Source: a virus
IMG/VR virus record: IMGVR_UViG_3300044815_000101
Coordinates: 1-40,301 of that record
DNA: 40,301 bases
Reading direction: 5' to 3' (one strand)
The translations under genes and the position numbers were made by a program. Under the pieces are notes generated by a model. It had not been told where the DNA came from. It saw only the letters and a list, made by a program, of their open reading frames with translations, and made no database searches. Each line of letters begins with the position of its first letter. Position 1 is the first letter of the stretch. Of the stretch, positions 1-40,301 are shown piece by piece.

Positions 1-288
1 TCCGGCGACGCGCGGATCTCCGGCGACGCGCAGATCGCCGGCGACGCGCAGATCTCCGGCGACGCGCAGATCTCCGGCGACGCGCAGATCGCCGGCGACG
101 CGCAGATCTCCGGCGACGCGCAGATCGCCGGCGACGCGCAGATCGCCGGCGACGCGCAGATCTCCGGCGACGCGCAGATCTTCGGCAACGCGCAGATCTC
201 CGGCAACGCGCAGATCTCCGGCAACGCGCAGATCTCCGGCAACGCGCGGATCTCCGGCAACGCGCAGATCGCCGGCGACGCGCAGATC
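1..288 (+). repeat. 16 tandem 18-bp repeats encoding [SAF]G[DN]A[QR]I hexads
   Basis: Sixteen contiguous 18-bp units are visible, with consensus tccggcgacgcgcagatc. Variation is limited: first base t or g, second base t in one unit, gac or aac at the third codon, cag or cgg at the fifth. Units 11-15 share the aac variant and units 1-10 and 16 the gac variant, which suggests block duplication. The array continues to the left edge and is probably longer outside the window. Unit length is a multiple of three, so copy-number change preserves the reading frame. Confidence 0.95.
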
Positions 289-564
289 GAGCAGCCGTGG
301 CACTTCCTGTTGGTGGAGCCGATCGGCTCCGAGAATGTCGCTGTCACCCTGTACCGCACCAAGAATGGAAAGCACCGGCTGCGTGTCGGCTGCTGGGAAG
401 GCACCCTCGGGACGCTGATGGCGGAGGTCAAGCGCCGCCGCGAACTGTGGCGTGCGACCGAGGAGCAGCAGGTGCTGTGGATGGCGCAGTACAAGGCCCT
501 CTACGCGCTGGGCAAGGCGACGGTGCAGCGGTGGGGCGACGACGCGAAGGCAGAGGCGAAGTGA
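1..564 (+). CDS. Hexapeptide-repeat (left-handed beta-helix) protein, 5' end cut by window
   Basis: The frame is open from base 1, so the true start lies upstream. The visible protein begins with 16 perfect-register hexads of the form [SAF]-G-[DN]-A-[QR]-I. These fit the hexapeptide consensus [LIV]-[GAED]-X2-[STAV]-X of left-handed beta-helices. A non-repeat tail of about 90 residues follows (IEQPWHFLLVEPIG onward), ending in a basic helical stretch rich in Glu, Arg and Lys. No catalytic residues of hexapeptide acyltransferases are visible. The role is unknown: a structural rod, a fibre-like domain or a host-interaction protein are all possible. The stop overlaps the GTG of the next gene, so the two are translationally coupled. 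The frame is clear, the function is not. Confidence 0.8.
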   Translation, partial: SGDARISGDAQIAGDAQISGDAQISGDAQIAGDAQISGDAQIAGDAQIAGDAQISGDAQIFGNAQISGNAQISGNAQISGNARISGNAQIAGDAQIEQPWHFLLVEPIGSENVAVTLYRTKNGKHRLRVGCWEGTLGTLMAEVKRRRELWRATEEQQVLWMAQYKALYALGKATVQRWGDDAKAEAK

Positions 565-3010: not shown

Positions 3011-3077
3011 GGGACTGTAGCTCAACTGGCAGAGCGCGCCTAGCGGCGAGGTAGAGGTTCAACTCCTCTCGGTTCCA
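3011..3077 (+). tRNA. Degenerate tRNA-like element without a normal anticodon/variable region
   Basis: The acceptor stem is gggactg (3011-3017) with cggttcc (3070-3076), all pairs allowing wobble, plus discriminator A. The D arm is gctc/gagc with an 8-nt loop containing GG. The T arm is agagg-ttcaact-cctct. Only 17 nt lie between D stem and T stem, where 22-24 are normal. No 5-bp anticodon stem with a U33-type 7-nt loop can be formed; instead CGCC-TAGC-GGCG makes a mini-hairpin. No CCA is encoded. It is probably a decayed tRNA gene or a tRNA mimic. An amino acid cannot be assigned. Confidence 0.55.
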
Positions 3078-7796: not shown

Positions 7797-7876
7797 CGCC
7801 CCGCCCGCTCACCCACCGTGGTAGCGTGGCCGGGCGGGCACCTCTACCACCCCGTCACACCACTCGAAGGAGCGCC
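7797..7876 (+). promoter_or_regulatory. Leader of the primase-helicase gene
   Basis: TAGCGT at 7822-7827 fits the TANNNT -10 pattern but lacks a convincing -35. The leader can form GTGGTAG (7818-7824) with CTACCAC (7844-7850). CACTCGAAGGAG at 7861-7872 is the conserved start-associated element and ends 4 nt before the TTG start. Confidence 0.5.
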
Positions 7877-10525
7877 TTGGATTCCCCACAACCCGACCAG
7901 GGCAGGCCATTCCAGCGGCTCCTCACCGTCCTCGGCCGCGACCAGGACGGCATCCGCCTCTGCACCGCCGGAGCAGACCAGCCCTTCCACGTCATCCCCT
8001 CACTGTTCCGCCCCGACACCGTCGACATCGCCGTCGCCGCGTTCACCGAGAAGCACCTCGACGTCTGGTTCGAGATCAACTACGCCCCCCACGTCGCCGG
8101 CGGCCGCACCTCCGAGAAGGACGTCACCCGACTGTCTGCCCTCTACGTCGACATCGACTTCAAAGGCTCCGAGACAGGCAAGCAGGGCATGGGGTCGGAA
8201 CCCGCTGCCCTCGAGCTGTGCGACATGCTCGCCGGCGCCCTCGGCGTCGCCCCCGCCGCCATCCTCTGGTCCGGGCACGGGCTGCAGGCGTACTGGCCCG
8301 TCGAGGACGGCGCCATCGACGACATCAACCAGCAGGACATCATCAACCTCTCCAAGAGGTGGGGGCTGCTGTGCATGGAGATGGCGCGCGCTGAGGGCGG
8401 CGCCGTCGACAACATCTTCGACCTCGCCCGCATCTTCCGCGCCCCCGGCTCGACGAACTGGAAGAATCCGGCACGCCCCGCTCCCACCCGCATAGAGTTC
8501 CCGCAAGGCAACCTGCCGCTGACCGTCGAGGAGATCGGGGAGGTGCTGGACGCGCACGGCATCCGCCACCCCGACACCGCCGAGCTCGCCGGGGAAGTCG
8601 TCTCACCCCCGTCGGAATGGGCGTTCGCCGACGCTGACTGCCACCACGTCGCCATCATCATGGAGGGCGTCAACGCCACTCCCAACTCCCGCCACCACTG
8701 GCTGCTGCAGCAGGCCACCCTCCTCACCGCCAGCATCCGCTACGGCTGCATCACCAAGGACACATTCCGGCAGTACCGGAAGGCGATCGAGCAGCGCCTG
8801 CAGCAGCTGCTCACCTCCGACGCATCCAACACGCGCGCCTACTCCCCGTACGAGGTGGAGTCCGCGTTCCGCCGCGCCCTCCTGAACGTGCAGACCATGA
8901 GCCAGGTGAAGCTCGAGGAGGAGATGCGCCGCCACCCCCACCCGGTGCTGCGCCTCATCCGGCAGGCCGAGCAGGCATCCGACGCCGGCCAGTCCAACGT
9001 GCGCATCAAGAACGAAGCCACCCCCACCAACCCCGGCCCAGACATCGCCTTCGACGGCGGGAACGTCCTCAAACTGCAGCCGCGCGAGCAGGTCATCACC
9101 AATGAGTTCGCCTACACCGACGCATCCAACGCCGACCGCCTCGCCGACTACGTCGAGGCCGACTACATCTTCGTCCCCGGCATCGGCTGGCACCGGTGGG
9201 AGGAGGGCTGCTACACGCCCGACGAGGAGACGACGATCATGGAGCGGGCGAAGGAGTCGCTGCTCGCGTTCCGGCGCTCCTACCCCACCGTCGACGACGT
9301 CCACGCCCACGTCAAGAAGTCACTCTCCGCGGGCGGGCTGCGGGCATCCGTCGCCCTCGCCGAGACACTCCCGCAGATGGTGGTGCCCCCGCACCAGCTC
9401 GACGGGAAACCGTACGACCTGCCCACACCCGGCGGCATCGTCGACCTCAACACGGGCATCCTGCGTCCTGCACGCCCCCGCATCGACCTGAACACGATGC
9501 GCACCGCCGTCACCCCCGAACGCATGCCGACGCCCCAGTGGGATGCCTTCATGCTGTTCTGCATGCAGACCCCCGAGATGGTTGCCTACATGCAGCGACT
9601 CCTCGGGGCGACCCTCATCGGGGAACCGCGGTTCCACATCCTCCCGATCCTCACCGGCGACGGCGGCAACGGCAAGTCCACCCTCCTCAACATCGTCGAG
9701 TGGTGCCTGGGCGGGTTCGCGAAGCGCATGGACGAGAACTTCCTCATTGAGCAGCGCAACCAGCAGCACCCGCAGGAGATCGCACGCCTGCGCGGCTGCC
9801 GCCTCGCGATCGCATCCGAGGCCAAGGCCAACGGCCGGTTCGCCGAGGCCCGGGTGAAGGCCCTCACCGGCGAGAAGCGGCTCACCGGCCGGTTCATGGG
9901 CGAGAACAGCTTCGACTTCAACAACTCCATCACCATGTGGCTGCTCGTCAACCACCTCCCCGCCGTCGCCGCCGGAGGCAAGGGGTTCTGGCGCCGCATC
10001 CGCAAGATCGCCCTCAAAGGCAAGATCCTCAAGGAGATCGAGAACCTCGAGAACCTCATCTTCGACGCCGAGGGACCCGGCATCCTGCAATGGATGATCG
10101 ACGGGGCCGTCGAGGTCATCGCCAACGGCTTGCAGGACCCCGAGGCGGTGAAGCAGGCCACCAAGGAGTACGAGGTCGAGGAGGACCACCTCGGCCAGTG
10201 GGTGGCAGACAACCTCATGGTCAACCCGACCGTCGGGGCGCTCAAGGACGAGGTGTACCGCCGGTACAAGAGGTTCGCCGTCGACGCCGCCATCCCCGTC
10301 CTCTCCAAGTCGGTGTTCGCCCGCGAGCTGCACCACTACATCGAGATCAACGAGTTCACCTCCACCCCCACCGTCTACGGCGGCATCGCGCTCGCCGTCG
10401 AGCAGCTCGGCTACGGCCCCCTCGCCCCCGCCCCCAACGTGCGCCTCACCCACGAGCCGCTGCCGCCCACCCCGGGCGCACCCGGACTGTTCGACACCGC
10501 CATGACCGGCGGCAGCGATGAGTGA
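7877..10525 (+). CDS. Primase-helicase: AEP-like primase fused to D5-type SF3 helicase
   Basis: This is 882 residues from TTG at 7877. The TTG is chosen because CACTCGAAGGAG ends just before it and because the in-frame ATG at 7826 lacks a ribosome site. The N-terminal part has ALYVDIDFKG near residue 90 and AAILWSGHGLQAYWP near residue 130, the DxD and sGxGlqaYW signatures of RepB-like archaeo-eukaryotic primases. A D5-N-like region follows. A Walker A GDGGNGKST lies near residues 594-602, then RLAIASEAK and WLLVNHLPAV, and FWRRIRKI as a sensor/arginine region of SF3 helicases. It probably primes and unwinds at the phage origin. The methyltransferase gene overlaps its end. Confidence 0.9.
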   Translation: MDSPQPDQGRPFQRLLTVLGRDQDGIRLCTAGADQPFHVIPSLFRPDTVDIAVAAFTEKHLDVWFEINYAPHVAGGRTSEKDVTRLSALYVDIDFKGSETGKQGMGSEPAALELCDMLAGALGVAPAAILWSGHGLQAYWPVEDGAIDDINQQDIINLSKRWGLLCMEMARAEGGAVDNIFDLARIFRAPGSTNWKNPARPAPTRIEFPQGNLPLTVEEIGEVLDAHGIRHPDTAELAGEVVSPPSEWAFADADCHHVAIIMEGVNATPNSRHHWLLQQATLLTASIRYGCITKDTFRQYRKAIEQRLQQLLTSDASNTRAYSPYEVESAFRRALLNVQTMSQVKLEEEMRRHPHPVLRLIRQAEQASDAGQSNVRIKNEATPTNPGPDIAFDGGNVLKLQPREQVITNEFAYTDASNADRLADYVEADYIFVPGIGWHRWEEGCYTPDEETTIMERAKESLLAFRRSYPTVDDVHAHVKKSLSAGGLRASVALAETLPQMVVPPHQLDGKPYDLPTPGGIVDLNTGILRPARPRIDLNTMRTAVTPERMPTPQWDAFMLFCMQTPEMVAYMQRLLGATLIGEPRFHILPILTGDGGNGKSTLLNIVEWCLGGFAKRMDENFLIEQRNQQHPQEIARLRGCRLAIASEAKANGRFAEARVKALTGEKRLTGRFMGENSFDFNNSITMWLLVNHLPAVAAGGKGFWRRIRKIALKGKILKEIENLENLIFDAEGPGILQWMIDGAVEVIANGLQDPEAVKQATKEYEVEEDHLGQWVADNLMVNPTVGALKDEVYRRYKRFAVDAAIPVLSKSVFARELHHYIEINEFTSTPTVYGGIALAVEQLGYGPLAPAPNVRLTHEPLPPTPGAPGLFDTAMTGGSDE

Positions 10526-21073: not shown

Positions 21074-21760
21074 ATGGCCGAGCTGTACACCCTCACAGGC
21101 ACCAACGTCGCCACCGAGGTGAAGGCGCAGTTCGGCGAGGAGGGCGACGTCCAGATCACCGACGCCCACGTGCTCCGGTGGATCAACCGCGGGCAGCGCG
21201 AGATCGCCGTCCGCACCCGGTTCCTGAAGTCGACCGTCACGAAGGACCTCGTCGCCGGAACCCCCACCTACGACCTCGGCGTCGACCGGCTCCTGCAGCT
21301 GGACTCCGTCTTCGTCAACGGGCTGCCGCTGAGCATGATGTCCGTGCAGGAGGCCGACAGCAGCATCCGCTACCTCGACCCGCAGGGCACCGCCAGCGGT
21401 TCGCAGCCGGAGGCCGGGTGGCTCGACAACGGCATCCTCAACCTCTACCCGAACCCGTCCGCCTCAGTCACCGGCGGGCTGCGCGTCAAGGTCATCGCCT
21501 ACCCCGCCGACCTCACCGCCATCGCGAACACCCTCACCATCCCCGACCGCCTGTTCAACCAGCTCGTCACCTACTGCCTCGCGCAGGCCCAGTACCTCGA
21601 CGCGAACCCCGAGCAGCACCAGCGCGACATCGCCGACTTCGAGCAGGGCCTCGCCCGCCAGTCGGAGATCCAGAACGCCGGCCTGTCCTCCGCGTTCCAG
21701 CAGATCCAGGGCGACCCCGATGACGGCATCTACTCCACCGGCGACGGGTACTTCGACTGA
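21074..21760 (+). CDS. Head-to-tail adaptor (short-tail type)
   Basis: This 228-residue protein has the pattern of podovirus adaptor or tail tubular A proteins: QITDAHVLRWINRGQREIAVRT near the N-terminus, then TYDLGVDRLLQLDSVFVNG, a beta region and YPADLTAIANTLTIPDRLFNQLVTYCLAQA. Such proteins form a ring under the portal and receive the tail nozzle. The ATG at 21074 has a weak SD (aagtaggttcc). It overlaps the nozzle gene by one base. Confidence 0.75.
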   Translation: MAELYTLTGTNVATEVKAQFGEEGDVQITDAHVLRWINRGQREIAVRTRFLKSTVTKDLVAGTPTYDLGVDRLLQLDSVFVNGLPLSMMSVQEADSSIRYLDPQGTASGSQPEAGWLDNGILNLYPNPSASVTGGLRVKVIAYPADLTAIANTLTIPDRLFNQLVTYCLAQAQYLDANPEQHQRDIADFEQGLARQSEIQNAGLSSAFQQIQGDPDDGIYSTGDGYFD

Positions 21761-23352
21761 TGGCCCGCAACTCGAAGCGCGCCCGCCGCCTCGGCCCCTT
21801 CACCGAGGGACTGGTGCAGCTGCTTGAGCCGTCCGCAATCTCCGACGCGGCACTCTCCGAGATCATCAACTTCGAGCAGGAGCTCGACGGTTCCCTGAAG
21901 AACCGGCCCGCGATCGTCTCCGACTCCGCCCTCCCCGACGCCGGCGCCGACAACACCCTCCTCGGCCCCGACTACTACACGGACACCTCCGGCAACACCT
22001 TCGCCGTCGTCACCGTCGGCACCACCACCCGCCTCTACAACATCGTCACGAAGGTGTGGACGCAAATCTGGGCGCACAAGGCATCCGGGTGGGTGCAGTA
22101 CGACAACAAGGTCGTCCTCATCTCCGAAACCGTCGTCGGCGGGTACTGGGAGGCCGGCGTATTCACCGCCACCCCGACGATGCCCCTCGGCAGCGACATC
22201 GTGTTCTTCAAGGAGCGGTTCTGGGCGTTCGGGGTCCGCGGAACCGCCAACGCCACCACCGTCTGGTTCTCCAACCTCACCGCCGCCGGCCCCCCCGCCA
22301 CCACCATCTACACCTGGTCGGCACTGGACTATTTCACCGTCTCCCAGGGCGACGGTGAGTGGGTGACCGGCATCATCGCCGGCGTCAACTCCCTCTACAT
22401 CTTCCGCAACGCCTCGGCGTGGAAGTTCTCCTACAACTCGACCCCGCTCGCCTCCGGCACCCTCTCCAACCTGTCGACGACGGTGGGGGCGGATAACAAG
22501 TGGTCGTTCTCCCGCTACGAGAACTACTACGTGGTGCTCTCCAACGGCACCCTGTACGAGATGATAAACGAGTACTTCTACCCGCTGAACGAGCTGAAGG
22601 TCAACTTCCAGCGCTCCGCCTACGTCGCCTCCCGCTCGATCGAGACGTGCCTGTCGATCTTCGGGGACCGTGCGATCGTCTGGTACTACGGCGCCATCTA
22701 CGTGTTCAACATGAAGCTCCGCGGGTGGACCAGATGGTTGACGACGACGACGAACGCTGCCCGGTTCCTGCAGATCCCGCAGACGGCGCTGCAGCGAGGT
22801 GAGCCGGCCGCGCTCGCAGTCACCGGCGGCACCGTCACCGCCCAGAAGGTCCTCTACCGGATCAAGGAGGGCACCGTCTCCGGCAACGGGGAGGAGATGT
22901 CGTGCATGATCCGCACGAAAGCGTACGACTTCGGGATCTCCGCGCTGAAGCGTCTGTTCTACTACGACGCCGAGGTGCGCACCTCGAGGGGTGTCGACTC
23001 GTTCGTGTTCCCCATCACCCTCCCGGCGGAGGACCCGGGGGTGACGTGGAACCAGATGACCCTCGCCTACTGGCCCACCAACTCCCCCGACATCGGCGAC
23101 CTGCTGCAGCTGCAGACATGGAACAGCCCCCTCTCGGCCGGCTCGATCACCTCGTTCGAGGACTCCGTCGACTTCCCCACCACGAACCCGCTGCAGCTGC
23201 TCATCAAGTTCATCCGCGGCGGTTTCGCGCGACGCTTCTACTTCGAGTTCTACATCTCCACCAACGGCAACGGGTCCACCAGCCCCGTCCGCATCTACAC
23301 CATCACGGTGTACGTTGGTGAGAAGGCGTACGCGGCAGCGAAGGTGTCCTAA
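21760..23352 (+). CDS. Tail nozzle/hub, P22 gp10 or T7 gp12-like beta-propeller
   Basis: This 530-residue, almost entirely beta-rich protein has repeated WxxF-type blades (WSFSRYENYYVVLSNGTLYE, DRAIVWYYGAIYVFNMKLRG). Early residues include ARRLGPFTEGLVQLLEPSAI and LKNRPAIVSDSA, the pattern of nozzle proteins where the first segment binds the adaptor ring. It plugs or extends the short tail. Position directly after the adaptor matches podoviruses. No catalytic depolymerase motif is visible. Confidence 0.75.
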   Translation: MARNSKRARRLGPFTEGLVQLLEPSAISDAALSEIINFEQELDGSLKNRPAIVSDSALPDAGADNTLLGPDYYTDTSGNTFAVVTVGTTTRLYNIVTKVWTQIWAHKASGWVQYDNKVVLISETVVGGYWEAGVFTATPTMPLGSDIVFFKERFWAFGVRGTANATTVWFSNLTAAGPPATTIYTWSALDYFTVSQGDGEWVTGIIAGVNSLYIFRNASAWKFSYNSTPLASGTLSNLSTTVGADNKWSFSRYENYYVVLSNGTLYEMINEYFYPLNELKVNFQRSAYVASRSIETCLSIFGDRAIVWYYGAIYVFNMKLRGWTRWLTTTTNAARFLQIPQTALQRGEPAALAVTGGTVTAQKVLYRIKEGTVSGNGEEMSCMIRTKAYDFGISALKRLFYYDAEVRTSRGVDSFVFPITLPAEDPGVTWNQMTLAYWPTNSPDIGDLLQLQTWNSPLSAGSITSFEDSVDFPTTNPLQLLIKFIRGGFARRFYFEFYISTNGNGSTSPVRIYTITVYVGEKAYAAAKVS

Positions 23353-30496: not shown

Positions 30497-30796
30497 ATGC
30501 TCCAATCCGGCGATGCCGTGTTCTTCGACAAGCTCGGAGACAACACCAGCGTCCCGCTGCTCACCCTCGTGAGCGGCCTCGACATCCGCGACCAGATCCG
30601 CCGCCACGCCCGCGAGCACATCGTCAACCCCGGCCACCCGGTGCGCGGTCCGATCGTCCGCCTGCGCCTCCGCGGCGGCTTCACCATCGTTGACGAGGAC
30701 ACCGGGTACACGTACGGCACCGCCCGCAAGTCCCCCACCTTCACCGAAGGCCCCGACATCCCGCCGTTCGCCCCGCCAGCAGGGTTCCAGCGGTGA
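30497..30796 (+). CDS. Hypothetical protein, 99 aa
   Basis: The ATG at 30497 is chosen because CACTCGAAAGGA precedes it. The protein is beta-rich at its centre (PIVRLRLRGGFTIVDEDTGYTYG) with a Pro-rich C-terminus. No family is recognised. It leads the operator-controlled operon that contains the HNH and Acb2-like genes, and its stop is overlapped by the HNH GTG (GTGA). Confidence 0.75.
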   Translation: MLQSGDAVFFDKLGDNTSVPLLTLVSGLDIRDQIRRHAREHIVNPGHPVRGPIVRLRLRGGFTIVDEDTGYTYGTARKSPTFTEGPDIPPFAPPAGFQR

Positions 30797-31266
30797 GCGA
30801 GCAGCGGTGGGGAGCCGTCGTCAACCCGGTCATCATGGACGGCCTCATCGCCCTCGCCCCCGACCCTGCCTTCGGGGAGCGGTTCTGGTCCAAGGTCGAC
30901 AAGCGCACCGTCGACTACGACGACGACTGCTGGATATGGACCGCCGCCCTCTCCTCCGAGGGGTACGGCAACATGCGCTGCCTCATCGACGGGGTGTGGC
31001 GCAACGTCCGCTCCCACAGGATCGCCTGGTTCATCACCTACCCGCACATCATCGACACCGACCTGGTCCTCGACCACCTGGTGCCCGTCTGCCGTGGCCG
31101 GTACTGCGTCAACCCCATGCACCTGGACCCCGTCACCCGCGCAGAGAACACCGCCCGCGGCACCGGCGTCGGCGCCGCCATCCAACGATCCCTCCGCGCC
31201 GAGCACCTGCTCGAGCGGGACACCCGCGAGCGCCCGCTCGCCACACCAGAGAGGCTCATCGCATGA
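30793..31266 (+). CDS. HNH endonuclease (HNH_3-like)
   Basis: This 157-residue protein starts with GTG overlapping the previous TGA. It has FWSKVDKRTVDYDDDCWIWT followed by SSEGYGNMR, SHRIAWF, then DHLVPVCRGRYCVNPMHLDPVTRAEN. The DHLVP histidine pair, the NPMHL asparagine/histidine and the CRGRYC cysteines are the ordered signatures of HNH homing-type endonucleases with the small GYG-W motif. Many are free-standing mobile nucleases. It overlaps the Acb2-like gene by ATGA. Confidence 0.88.
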   Translation: MSEQRWGAVVNPVIMDGLIALAPDPAFGERFWSKVDKRTVDYDDDCWIWTAALSSEGYGNMRCLIDGVWRNVRSHRIAWFITYPHIIDTDLVLDHLVPVCRGRYCVNPMHLDPVTRAENTARGTGVGAAIQRSLRAEHLLERDTRERPLATPERLIA

Positions 31267-31616
31267 GCGCAGACGAGAACACCGAAAACCAGATCGCCGC
31301 ATCCAACGCCGCCCTCGCGAAGGCGAAGGCCCGGTTCTTCAAGGCCGGCGACTTCCCCGTCACCCCCGAGCAGCAGAAGGCGGTCGAGCTCCTGCAGGCG
31401 CACGTCATCGGCCTCGCCGCGGCGATTGAGCAGCACATCCCCGACGGCCGCAACAAGGCCCTCGCCCTCACCGCCCTCGAGGAGGTGCAGATGCGCGCAG
31501 GCCGCGCCGTCTGGGATCCCACCAGCACCTGGCCGCCCGACACCGCCCTGCAGCCCGGTGACCCCCACTACGCGCCGCCGCAGCCGGTCATGCCGTTCGA
31601 TGGGAGTGTGGACTGA
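31263..31616 (+). CDS. Acb2-like cyclic-nucleotide sponge candidate (anti-CBASS)
   Basis: This 117-residue protein has residues about 35-90 that read TPEQQKAVELLQAHVIG, then HIPDGRNKALALTALEEVQM and RAGRAVW. From memory of the Acb2 family, members end with a helical hairpin of the form P-x-x-R-x-x-x-LALTKLEEA-x-MWANAAI. The spacing and the LALT-LEE-xxM core agree, while the WAN part is changed to RAG. Acb2 proteins form hexamers that sequester cyclic oligonucleotide signals of CBASS and Thoeris. The flexible tail is Pro-rich. The family call is by pattern recall, not by alignment. Confidence 0.6.
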   Translation: MSADENTENQIAASNAALAKAKARFFKAGDFPVTPEQQKAVELLQAHVIGLAAAIEQHIPDGRNKALALTALEEVQMRAGRAVWDPTSTWPPDTALQPGDPHYAPPQPVMPFDGSVD

Positions 31617-33219: not shown

Positions 33220-33269
33220 CGGCAACAGCGAAGCCCCCGCCTCGAGAGGCGGGGGCTTCGCTGTTGCCG
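33220..33269. terminator. Perfect 23-bp bidirectional terminator
   Basis: Bases 33220-33242 pair perfectly with 33247-33269 around a 4-nt loop (cgag). It lies right after the rightward gene and just before the 3' end of the leftward operon, so it stops transcription from both sides. Confidence 0.9.
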
Positions 33270-36207: not shown

Positions 36208-36720
36208 TCAGGCTACCGCGGCGTCATCCCACGCGCGGGCGACCAGCGGCGGCACCAAACGCAGGTGCTGCTGCCTCGGCAGCTCGAGCACCACCGCCTT
36301 GAGCGCCTCCTGCGACGGGAACCGCCGCTCCGCCCGCGCGTCGAACAGGAAGCGGGTGCGTGCCCGCTCGGCACGCAGCAGCCGCAGGTACCGTGCCCGC
36401 AGGCGCTCCTTCGCCGCCAGCTGCTGCTCGAGCACGGCGACACGCCGGTTGAGGACGGCGATGTGGTCGAGGCGCTCCCCGGCCGTCTGCCATGCCAGGC
36501 GCAGCTCGTCGCGCAGCTGCGCCTCCGTGAGCGCGAACTGCTGCTCCGGGGTGCGGCCGACGAAGTTGTGGTCCGCCGACCAGTCGATCCTCGGCGCCTT
36601 CGCGGCGCGGCGCTCGCGGATGCGGGCGACCAGCTCGGGGATGCCGATGAGGGCCGTCCAGCCGAGCAGCATGATCGCGGTGACGACGGCGGCGAGCTGC
36701 AGACCCTCGAGCGGCGTCAT
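36208..36720 (-). CDS. Membrane-anchored coiled-coil protein, 170 aa
   Basis: The start ATG 36720 shares a base with the upstream TGA. Residues 4-29 form a transmembrane helix (LEGLQLAAVVTAIMLLGWTA), followed by a charged segment and a long coiled coil (LNRRVAVLEQQLAAKERL). A basic C-terminal domain includes LELPRQQHLRLVPPLVARAW. It is cotranscribed with the XRE regulator and the TerS-like gene. It might be a spanin-like or tail-associated protein, but no motif supports a definite role. Confidence 0.7.
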   Translation of the reverse strand: MTPLEGLQLAAVVTAIMLLGWTALIGIPELVARIRERRAAKAPRIDWSADHNFVGRTPEQQFALTEAQLRDELRLAWQTAGERLDHIAVLNRRVAVLEQQLAAKERLRARYLRLLRAERARTRFLFDARAERRFPSQEALKAVVLELPRQQHLRLVPPLVARAWDDAAVA

Positions 36721-37226
36721 CACGCCACCTCCGTGGGGAGCTTCTGCACGGCGGCGAGGTACTCCGGTGACACGCCGAGGACGTTCATGAGGGCGCCGGC
36801 GAGGCTGTCGGGCATGCCGCGGGTGCGGAGGCCCTTCTCGTACCCGGCGACGACGTCCTCGTTGACGCGCAGGAGGGAGGCGAAACCGGTGGCGGAGTCG
36901 ACGACCTGCGAGCGCCAGTGCCGGAACGACGTGTAGTGGGCGATGTGGCGGGGTTCCAGCTGCAGGGTCGCACGGGCACGTGTGGACAGCTCCACCTTCT
37001 CCTCCTTCGCCAGCCACGCGACGAGCTCGTTGCGCAGACTGCCGGGCTGCATCTTCAGCCGCTTCTCGATCGCCGTGCGCGTCTCCGGCAGCGGCATCCG
37101 GGTGCGGCCCTCCTCAATGGCGGTCACCGTCCCCCGTGCGATCCCCAGGTCCCGTGCCAGCTGCGACTGCGACACCGCCGCACGCTGCCGCGCCAGGCGC
37201 AGCGGGTGATCCAGACGCCTACCCAC
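36720..37226 (-). CDS. XRE-family regulator with two HTH domains, immunity repressor candidate
   Basis: This 168-residue protein is read from GTG 37226, chosen because gggaggctcgc gives an SD at the right spacing; longer in-frame extensions are Arg-rich and unlikely. The first HTH is residues 10-40 (LRLARQRAAVSQSQLARDLG and GTVTAIEEG), a classic cro/C1-type fold. Residues about 90-160 (SATGFASLLRVNEDVVAGYEKGLRTRG, LAGALMNVLGVSPEYL) form a second HTH-like module. It probably binds the TGTAYAAC sites around 37660-38212. The protein lies 700-1,000 bp downstream of these sites in its own operon. Confidence 0.75.
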   Translation of the reverse strand: MGRRLDHPLRLARQRAAVSQSQLARDLGIARGTVTAIEEGRTRMPLPETRTAIEKRLKMQPGSLRNELVAWLAKEEKVELSTRARATLQLEPRHIAHYTSFRHWRSQVVDSATGFASLLRVNEDVVAGYEKGLRTRGMPDSLAGALMNVLGVSPEYLAAVQKLPTEVA

Positions 37227-37635
37227 GCGAGCCTCCCGCGAGATCCGCCGTCGCAGCCTCCGCAGCAGCACGCGCCGCCGCCTGCGCGTCAACCGCGGCC
37301 TGCTGGTAGGCGATGTACTCCGCACCGGTCAGCGGCGCCCCGTGCAGGCTCCTCACCTCGAGCACCCCCGCGAACGACGCCGCAATACTGGTGGCAGCCC
37401 GGGCGAACTGCGCATGCAGCGCCTGGCCTATCAGATCCCCCATCGAGTCCCAGTCCTGCTCGAGCAGCGCCGCCGGCAGCGAGATCGTCTCCACCAGCCC
37501 GAAGTCACCCACATCCTCCGGCAACGCCACCGACAGCTGCAGCACCCACGGGGCGGCAGGAGCCTCGGCATCCGGTGCGGCAGAGGCGTCCGGGTCGGCG
37601 TGCGGTGCGGGAAGGTTCTCAGGGGAGGTGTCCAT
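37219..37635 (-). CDS. Hypothetical protein, 138 aa
   Basis: The start is leaderless: TACCGT, 6 nt, ATG. The N-terminal 30 residues are Ala/Pro/Asp-rich, probably disordered, followed by a compact mixed domain (WVLQLSVALPEDVGDFGLVE) and an Ala-rich helix. No function is recognised. Its last codons overlap the XRE gene by 8 bp, so the two are coupled. An operator-like site lies just upstream of its -10. Confidence 0.75.
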   Translation of the reverse strand: MDTSPENLPAPHADPDASAAPDAEAPAAPWVLQLSVALPEDVGDFGLVETISLPAALLEQDWDSMGDLIGQALHAQFARAATSIAASFAGVLEVRSLHGAPLTGAEYIAYQQAAVDAQAAARAAAEAATADLAGGSRG

Positions 37636-39140: not shown

Positions 39141-39421
39141 CCCGGATCACCCGCGCCGACGTCGAGCGGCAGGTGGAAAGCGTCAAGGCGGCCGCCGTGA
39201 ACGTCGGCGCTGTGCAGCTCACCTACTCGGGCGGCCTGTTCTCTGAGCTCTACCTGCAGGGGGCCTATGGCACCTACATGCTGCAGGCGGGCACCGACTA
39301 CGGGCACAAGGGCGGCGCGGTCGACGTCGGCACCGCTCGAGGGCTACGAGACATCTCGACATTCCTGCACGGCCTGCACACCGGCCTCGACTCGATCCGC
39401 TACACGAATAACCCCCGATGA
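39137..39421 (+). CDS. Hypothetical protein, 94 aa
   Basis: It uses a GTG start in a GTGA overlap with the previous stop. The protein has an N-terminal helix (RADVERQVESVKAAAVN) and a beta/Gly/Tyr-rich middle (LYLQGAYGTYMLQAGTDY) ending in GLDSIRYTNNPR. No domain is recognised. It is the third of four overlapping genes in a short operon ending at the terminator 39502. Confidence 0.7.
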   Translation: MTRITRADVERQVESVKAAAVNVGAVQLTYSGGLFSELYLQGAYGTYMLQAGTDYGHKGGAVDVGTARGLRDISTFLHGLHTGLDSIRYTNNPR

Positions 39422-39492
39422 CGCCGCAGGGCGTAACCGCCGGGATCCTCGCCACCGTGCTCCTCCTGGTCATCCTCACCAACCTGTTCTAA
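39418..39492 (+). CDS. Very small membrane peptide, 24 aa
   Basis: The ATG overlaps the previous TGA (ATGA). The peptide is one hydrophobic helix (GILATVLLLVILTNLF) after a short MTPQGVTA. The next feature is a terminator 10 nt downstream, which supports the end of an operon here. Small single-pass peptides occur as toxin-like or regulatory phage proteins; no specific role can be given. Confidence 0.55.
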   Translation: MTPQGVTAGILATVLLLVILTNLF

Positions 39493-39530: not shown

Positions 39531-39751
39531 ATCGTCGCGCCCGCAGGCGCCAACGAAACGACTGGATCATCATCATCGCCACCGCCGCCCGCAACGCCCC
39601 CACCGGGGCCACCGCGAGCCGCGCAAACGCATGCCGAGGTGGCACCGGGCACCCCGGTCGCATCGCCACCGAATGGAACCAGCAGCGGCGCACTCAGGGC
39701 TGCCGCGAGAGCGAAGGACACGGCCATACGGCGGCTAGCACCCTCTCGCGC
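39531..39751. other. High-GC stretch without a convincing gene
   Basis: Between the terminator and the DnaA boxes I see only an 83-codon minus-strand frame (39727 to 39476) with a signal-like start (MAVSFALAAALSAPLL) and Gly/Asp runs. Its codon bias is weak and it runs through the terminator and the small peptide gene, so I do not call it. The rest may be a decayed gene. Confidence 0.5.
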
Positions 39752-39825
39752 TGTGGACAACTTATGCACAGGTTTGTTCATAGTTGTGGATAATTAATTG
39801 CATACTGCGTAGTGCTTGTGGATAA
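39752..39825. other. DnaA-box cluster, candidate replication origin
   Basis: TGTGGACAA (39752-39760, the reverse of the actinobacterial box TTGTCCACA), TTATGCACA (39762-39770, one mismatch to TTATCCACA), and two exact TGTGGATAA (39785-39793 and 39817-39825). The last two share orientation and are 32 bp apart. An AT-rich region follows directly. Four boxes within 74 bp is the hallmark of a DnaA-dependent origin. Confidence 0.7.
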
Positions 39826-39866
39826 CTCAGAATCGAATGACCCCAGTGTTTATAAGGGAAATAAAA

Positions 39867-40018
39867 GTTAGCGTTGCATGAGCTAATACGAACTCGGGCC
39901 TAGGGAAACTGCTATGCAATGCCTATTCATATTCTGAATCTCAACGATTGATCAGTGAAAAGGCATTCCATAGCGGTTTCCTATAGGGTGATTCTGCATT
40001 AGCTCCTGCAACGCTAAC
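39867..40018. repeat. 152-bp imperfect inverted repeat in the origin region
   Basis: Outer arms of 21 bp (39867-39887 and 39998-40018) pair with one mismatch. Inner arms (39899-39924 and 39961-39987) pair over about 26 bp with three to four differences. The arms are separated by unpaired 10-11 nt segments, and the central loop is 36 nt. The whole is AT-rich against a high-GC genome. It ends just before the ribosome site of the next gene. It could extrude as a cruciform, serve as a replication initiator site, or be a structured RNA leader. Confidence 0.85.
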
Positions 40019-40034
40019 TTGAGAGGACTTTCCT

Positions 40035-40301
40035 ATGAACGACCTGTCCGGCGCGACCGCCGCCGTATCCGCCCTTGCTGCCGATGTGGTGATTCCGTAC
40101 CCCATCGACATGGCCGAGCTGTCTGCGATCCAGCACGCCCTCATGGTCAACAGGTTGGAGGCCCGGGGCTTCCGGCTGCACCCCGACGACCTGCCCGCCC
40201 TGAACGTGGCCCTCTACGCCGACCCCCGCTCCCCCGCTCTGCCCGCGCTCGCCGAGGCCGACCCGGAGGCGCACCGGGTGGAGCGCCGCGCAGTGGTGGC
40301 T
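40035..40301 (+). CDS. Hypothetical protein next to the origin, 3' end cut by window
   Basis: The ATG at 40035 follows gagaggactttcct. The frame is open to the end of the window (89 codons seen). The visible part starts MNDLSGATAAVSALAADVV and contains PIDMAELSAIQHALMVNRLE and a Pro/Ala/Glu-rich stretch. No replication-initiator motif is recognised in the visible part. Its position beside the DnaA boxes and the large inverted repeat makes an initiator or copy-control role possible, but this is only positional. Confidence 0.7.
   Translation, partial: MNDLSGATAAVSALAADVVIPYPIDMAELSAIQHALMVNRLEARGFRLHPDDLPALNVALYADPRSPALPALAEADPEAHRVERRAVVA

What the first reader, a model, noticed from the sequence alone, without database searches (positions are those of the whole stretch)
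39752..40034. DnaA-box cluster plus a 152-bp inverted repeat: a candidate phage replication origin
Seen: four DnaA boxes in 74 bp (two exact TGTGGATAA, one TGTGGACAA, one TTATGCACA), then an AT-rich inverted repeat with 21-bp outer arms (one mismatch) and about 26-bp inner arms. Known: DnaA boxes of this form bind host initiator; few dsDNA phages with their own primase-helicase depend on DnaA. Inference: a plasmid-like origin used at the prophage or early stage, with the large palindrome as a second initiator site or cruciform.
Basis: partly seen in the sequence, partly recalled or inferred. Interest (0 to 1): 0.85.

Follow-up and report, generated by a model that had tools for sequence, protein, structure and literature searches.

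The report
Palindromic phage replication origin with DnaA boxes
A phage of high-GC bacteria carries, in one short AT-rich gap before its early genes, four binding sites for the host's replication starter protein beside a very large palindrome, and relatives keep this layout in the same place while the palindrome's letters change, so it is most likely where the virus starts copying its DNA.

Summary
All four DnaA boxes in the 40.3 kb window lie within 74 bp. Beside them is the window's strongest inverted repeat (156 bp, 65-nt arms, 77% complementary; fold z about -12). Both sit in the deepest AT-rich trough of a 67% GC phage fragment.

It is most likely a replication origin. Portal-based searching found IMG/VR relatives with a homologous primase-polymerase/SF3-helicase. 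At the syntenic place, upstream of the early genes, six of the 12 contigs examined there have clustered DnaA boxes, and nearly all have a large palindrome. One lineage conserves boxes and outer arms but not the spacer; between lineages the arm sequence differs entirely. That resembles the pRN1 stem-loop origin, also served by a primase-polymerase/SF3 protein. DnaA boxes look like an accessory present in some lineages.

An early-promoter operator array, or a site with both roles, remains possible. No replication or binding was tested. The roles of DnaA and of the primase-polymerase are inferred.

The parts
39752..39760 (-). DnaA box TTGTCCACA
   Evidence: exact match
39762..39770 (+). DnaA box TTATGCACA
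   Evidence: exact match to TTRTSCACA
39785..39793 (-). DnaA box TTATCCACA (consensus)
   Evidence: exact match
39817..39825 (-). DnaA box TTATCCACA (consensus)
   Evidence: exact match
39691..40094 (.). deepest AT-rich trough of the window, probable unwinding region plus initiator sites
   Evidence: 36% GC at the 100-bp minimum against 67% mean
39865..39887 (.). outer left arm of the palindrome, AAGTTAGCGTTGCATGAGCTAAT
   Evidence: 22/23 complementary to 39998-40020
39904..39929 (.). inner left arm
   Evidence: 23/26 complementary to 39956-39981
39930..39955 (.). central 26 nt between the arms
39956..39981 (.). inner right arm
39998..40020 (.). outer right arm, ATTAGCTCCTGCAACGCTAACTT
40035..40301 (+). 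first gene downstream (cut off by the contig end), with a purine-rich GAGAGGAC upstream of its start; no family match
39418..39492 (+). small single-helix hydrophobic peptide gene left of the origin (MTPQGVTAGILATVLLLVILTNLF); a similar small hydrophobic ORF precedes the locus in several relatives
   Evidence: read by eye
36720..37325 (-). HTH (Xre-type) regulator whose homologue lies about 2-3 kb from the same locus in relatives
7826..10525 (+). primase-polymerase + D5_N + SF3 helicase with a predicted C-terminal winged-helix-like end; candidate initiator

Best explanation
The locus is the phage's own origin for bidirectional (theta-type) replication early in infection, just upstream of the rightward early operon. 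Inferred working: host DnaA binds the four boxes and helps open the AT-rich DNA. The palindrome supplies inverted docking sites for the phage's primase-polymerase/SF3 helicase (C-terminal winged helix), which assembles as two opposed hexamers, melts the core and primes both strands. Shown here: the anatomy, its statistical reality, its syntenic recurrence in relatives, the conservation of boxes and outer arms in one lineage, and the domain make-up of the candidate initiator. Inferred: that replication starts here, that DnaA binds, that the primase-polymerase is what reads the arms, and that the sites are inverted docking sites rather than an extruded cruciform.
For: Only DnaA cluster and best palindrome of the window, in its deepest AT trough. 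Homologous primase-polymerase in 19 of 27 related contigs. DnaA-box clusters at the matching place, about 8-10 kb upstream of that gene, in G006, G013, G015, G018, G019 and G024. Flanking HTH gene syntenic. The locus holds the best palindrome of the sequence scanned in G001, G002, G009, G010, G018 and G019, with different sequence in each lineage. In one lineage GTGACAGCG arms and DnaA boxes are nearly invariant while the spacer varies. Phages with the same structural module but a Pol I replication module (Shocker, Jasmine, DS1) lack a cluster. The primase-polymerase has an AEP-like DxD motif, D5_N and SF3 domains, an ASFV PrimPol-like fold and a helix-helix-helix-strand-strand C-terminus. In pRN1, a protein of this domain make-up needs a roughly 100-nt stem-loop whose structure but not sequence is conserved (PMC4234260).
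Against: No binding or replication test. The arms of the window itself have no sequence relative anywhere searched, so its own arms cannot be tested for conservation. TM4-type phages with related primase-polymerase have no DnaA boxes in the stretches read. G009 has only a one-mismatch box and G017 a single box with short palindromes. GC skew was not informative because it follows gene direction. The palindrome directly precedes a gene start, as an operator would.
Confidence: 0.7

Rival explanations
1. Early-promoter control region: the palindrome is an operator array for the conserved HTH regulator or for the product of the first early gene, and DnaA acts as a transcription factor. No replication starts here.
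For: It sits directly before the first gene of an operon. Relatives G001, G002 and G006 have a DNA-binding-like first gene after it (by eye). A 15-bp perfect palindrome is invariant beside the arms in one lineage. A conserved HTH gene lies 2-3 kb away. One promoter-like match overlaps a box.
Against: Arms of 15-25 bp spanning 100-156 bp plus a whole DnaA cluster are more than an operator usually needs. The promoter-like match is within chance (1 found, 0.5 expected). Many origins also autoregulate, so this may coexist with the best explanation.
Confidence: 0.17
2. Prophage or plasmid maintenance origin.
For: DnaA boxes plus repeats is a plasmid-origin layout; actinobacterial phages with extrachromosomal prophages exist (PMC7157519).
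Against: No tyrosine integrase, serine recombinase or ParA in nine family contigs; no portal relative in 84,980 genomes. About 5 kb of the window's genome is probably missing, so a repA there cannot be excluded.
Confidence: 0.05
3. DnaA decoy: the cluster titrates host DnaA to stop host replication, and the palindrome is a separate element.
For: Clustered strong boxes in a phage with its own primase and helicase.
Against: Only two to four clustered boxes per genome, always next to the palindrome at one place; a decoy needs neither.
Confidence: 0.04
4. RNA element: the hairpin acts in the leader transcript or as an RNA replication primer.
For: Strong RNA fold on both strands; RNA-based prophage origins exist (PMC7157519).
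Against: Both strands fold equally; mismatches show no G-U bias to either strand (4 against 3). No Rfam family at its gathering score; the microRNA matches are far below it.
Confidence: 0.04

Closest known systems
pRN1-family stem-loop origin (Sulfolobus plasmids; proposed also for Bordetella phage BIP-1), PMC4234260
   Same: Large stem-loop of about 100 nt or more, conserved in structure but not sequence, in an element whose replication protein joins an AEP primase, an SF3 helicase and a C-terminal winged helix.
   Different: Here DnaA boxes stand beside it; it lies kilobases upstream of the primase-polymerase gene, before the early operon, not just downstream of the replication gene; bacterial host.
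Phage P4 and SaPI origins (initiator-helicase with its own binding repeats)
   Same: A helicase-primase type initiator is expected to bind repeats at the origin.
   Different: P4 alpha has a Toprim primase; DnaA clusters are not part of those models as I know them; no repeat sequence is shared. Details partly from memory, partly from PMC4234260 and PMC7145576.
Iteron plasmid origins with DnaA boxes (P1, F, RK2 type)
   Same: DnaA boxes next to repeated initiator sites and an AT-rich part (general knowledge).
   Different: Sites form one nested palindrome rather than a row of direct repeats, and no plasmid-type Rep gene was recognised.
Extrachromosomal mycobacterial prophage origins (PMC7157519)
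   Same: Origins of actinobacterial phages.
   Different: Those use RepA or an RNA, with parABS; that paper reports no repeated motifs next to repA; here no ParA was found.

Membership tests
pRN1-type stem-loop origin | large stem-loop of about 100 nt or more | tested here: met
   156-bp repeat, z about -12
pRN1-type stem-loop origin | structure kept while sequence diverges among relatives | tested here: met
   different palindromes at the matching place in several lineages; weak in G017 and G006
pRN1-type stem-loop origin | AEP primase + SF3 helicase + C-terminal winged helix replication protein | tested here: met
   DxD motif, D5_N, SF3, ASFV PrimPol-like fold; the C-terminal winged helix only as predicted secondary structure
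pRN1-type stem-loop origin | stem-loop directly downstream of the replication gene | tested here: not met
   locus is about 6-10 kb upstream of the primase-polymerase in relatives
pRN1-type stem-loop origin | stem integrity required for replication | not testable with these tools
   needs mutants
DnaA-box replication origin | cluster of consensus DnaA boxes beside AT-rich DNA | tested here: met
   four boxes in 74 bp
DnaA-box replication origin | host DnaA binds and initiates | not testable with these tools
   needs footprinting and depletion of DnaA
Iteron origin | several copies of one initiator word | tested here: inconclusive
   clear in relatives (GTGACAGC, GCTTGATGCTA); in the window outer and inner arms share only a weak word, chance about 2%
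Extrachromosomal prophage origin | repA or RNA origin with parABS | tested here: not met
   no ParA in nine contigs; window incomplete; repA and parB not searched by their own profiles
Known RNA family | covariance-model match at gathering score | tested here: not met
   only a tRNA at 3011-3077 in the window

The most novel reading that the evidence does not exclude
A widespread, undescribed hybrid origin of podovirus-like phages: host DnaA and a phage primase-polymerase/SF3 helicase co-initiate at a giant palindrome that is kept as a shape while its sequence turns over freely. In a sample of 80 viral contigs chosen only for two nearby DnaA boxes, the contig's best palindrome lay next to the boxes in 17, against 8.5 expected (P about 0.003), including distant portal relatives L186 and L210 with 249- and 234-bp palindromes.
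Probability: 0.3. Interest if true: 0.75.

Novelty: new variant of a known kind. Interest (0 to 1): 0.55.

Why it matters
Origins of most phages outside a few models are unmapped. If right, this gives a concrete, portable test case for how a primase-polymerase/SF3 initiator picks its start site, shows a phage with its own primase-helicase still recruiting DnaA, and offers a way to find origins by shape rather than sequence in environmental phages. I found no paper in the searched library describing DnaA boxes in this family, but most subscription journals are not in it.

Tried and rejected
DNA similarity of the region to phage and plasmid records: none in phages, only short chance-like matches in plasmids. 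Outer-arm pattern in IMG/VR: none. Single-protein searches with the flanking genes and the primase-polymerase: none confirmed; the portal alignment worked. Portal in sequenced genomes: none. RNA explanation: no strand bias, no Rfam match at gathering score. Assembly-made palindrome: judged unlikely because the arms are only 77% alike and relatives have the same layout. Miniature transposon: no target duplication seen by eye at the palindrome ends, no second copy in the window. GC skew: follows gene direction. The idea that all four window arms carry one iteron is weak. The GTGACAGC-type pattern scan mostly returned unrelated contigs besides the known five, and L114 was dropped after reading its ORFs.

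Full report
WHAT THE WINDOW IS. The window is a 40,301-bp IMG/VR virus record, 67% GC. Its portal is nearest to Cellulosimicrobium phage DS1, Microbacterium phage Shocker and Arthrobacter phage Jasmine (34-36% identity, genomes of 45-47 kb), so probably about 5 kb is missing between its right and left ends (inference). Early genes at the left end include an SNF2-type helicase, an exonuclease and a primase-polymerase/helicase; a minus-strand block at 31.8-38 kb carries a peptidase, an HTH regulator and a TerS-like gene (the last only by resemblance).

THE OBSERVATION. All details are confirmed with small corrections. The four boxes are the only ones in the window; the palindrome is 39865-40020, the strongest in the window; both lie in the deepest AT trough.

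RELATIVES. A portal alignment found 157 relatives in IMG/VR, 80 kept. Of 27 longer contigs, 19 encode a primase-polymerase 35-43% identical to the window's. Twelve contigs had the stretch upstream of that gene available. In six (G006, G013, G015, G018, G019, G024) two to four exact DnaA boxes cluster there. G018 and G019 are near-identical and not independent, and G013, G015, G018, G019 and G024 form one lineage by their shared repeats. G017 has one box; G009 a one-mismatch box; G001, G002, G010 and G011 none near the locus. So DnaA boxes vary between lineages.

THE PALINDROME IN RELATIVES. At the same locus there is a large palindrome in almost all: G018/G019 (106 bp, z about -8), G024, G013, G015, G016 (z -2.7 to -3.8), G009 with two of about 100 bp (z about -3), G001, G002 and G010 (z about -5 to -7). 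It is the best palindrome of the whole contig in G009, G018 and G019 and of the stretch held in G001, G002 and G010; in G013, G015, G006 and G024 it is not the best. I did not inspect G011 at this locus. The z-scores are for segments I selected because they are palindromes, so they describe strength and are not independent tests; the position of the best palindrome is the fairer evidence. The flanking HTH gene is homologous and 2-3 kb from the locus in L092, L093, L094, L096, L098 and L109, about 4 kb in L106.

CONSERVATION TEST. In the one alignable lineage the outer arms GTGACAGCG...CGCTGTCAC, a further iteron pair, the DnaA boxes and a 15-bp palindrome ATGTCGTGACGACAT are nearly invariant; the spacer between arms is not, and differences there do not keep pairing. 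Between lineages the arm sequence is wholly different while a palindrome stays. Both facts fit initiator sites that co-evolve with their protein; shape selection is possible but not shown.

THE CANDIDATE INITIATOR. The primase-polymerase has an invariant DxD motif, D5_N and DUF5906/SF3 domains, best fold matches to ASFV PrimPol (E 9e-17, low overall TM-score, 12% identity), and a predicted helix-helix-helix-strand-strand end at about 773-856 (model mean pLDDT 69.5). A winged helix there is an inference from secondary structure. Nothing shows that it binds the arms.

CONTROLS. Phages with the same structural genes but a Pol I type replication module have no box cluster (Shocker and DS1 no boxes; Jasmine, Adat and Casserole scattered); ctEqG8 has two boxes 236 bp apart. 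Mycobacteriophages TM4, Reptar3000 and Prithvi, with related primase-polymerase, have no boxes in the 31-36 kb read. So neither module alone predicts the boxes.

LIFESTYLE. No tyrosine integrase, serine recombinase or ParA in nine contigs and no portal relative in 84,980 genomes argue for a lytic phage, though each contig may be incomplete.

HOW GENERAL. DnaA-box pairs are common in viral contigs (120 stretches before the scan stopped at its limit). In 80 of these the best palindrome lay within 400 bp of the pair in 17, expected 8.5 (P about 0.003). This was a follow-up not planned in advance; a first count with a wider exclusion zone gave 21. The sample may include host DNA and phage-plasmids, and AT-rich intergenic DNA favours palindromes. 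Several top cases carry portal and terminase genes. It is a lead, not a result.

COMPARISON. It works most like the proposed pRN1-type stem-loop origin (PMC4234260), with host DnaA boxes added and a different position relative to the replication gene. It is not filed as a pRN1-type member because the positional feature is not met and function is untested.

Noticed in passing
window 30690-31616 (ORF; gene call 31263-31616): C-terminal match to the Acb2/Tad1 hairpin domain (E 6e-12), a domain of anti-CBASS/anti-Thoeris sponges; phrog_1454 also matches.
   Followed up: no
window 1-361: In-frame tandem 18-bp repeat (SGDAQI-type hexapeptide) at the very left end of the contig; probably where the assembly broke.
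   Followed up: no
window 33220-33269: Perfect 24-bp inverted repeat with 2-nt loop, possibly a bidirectional terminator.
   Followed up: no
window 3011-3077: tRNA found by Rfam (48.6 bits) but not by ARAGORN.
   Followed up: no
L150 around 21581-21840 (Arthrobacter phage Bridgette): Strong palindrome score (60) a few hundred bases downstream of its primase-polymerase gene, the position proposed for pRN1/BIP-1.
   Followed up: no
L186 6104-6352; L210 531-764: 249- and 234-bp palindromes beside paired DnaA boxes in contigs with distant portal relatives.
   Followed up: partly
L100 11500-12400 (G009): Two ~100-bp palindromes sharing a word of about 20 bp in four copies, with GCGAAAAAGTTGCAGATAGC present once in each orientation.
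   Followed up: partly
L091, L090, L093, L094, L109 (alignment A3): Invariant 15-bp palindrome ATGTCGTGACGACAT next to the origin arms, probable operator.
   Followed up: no
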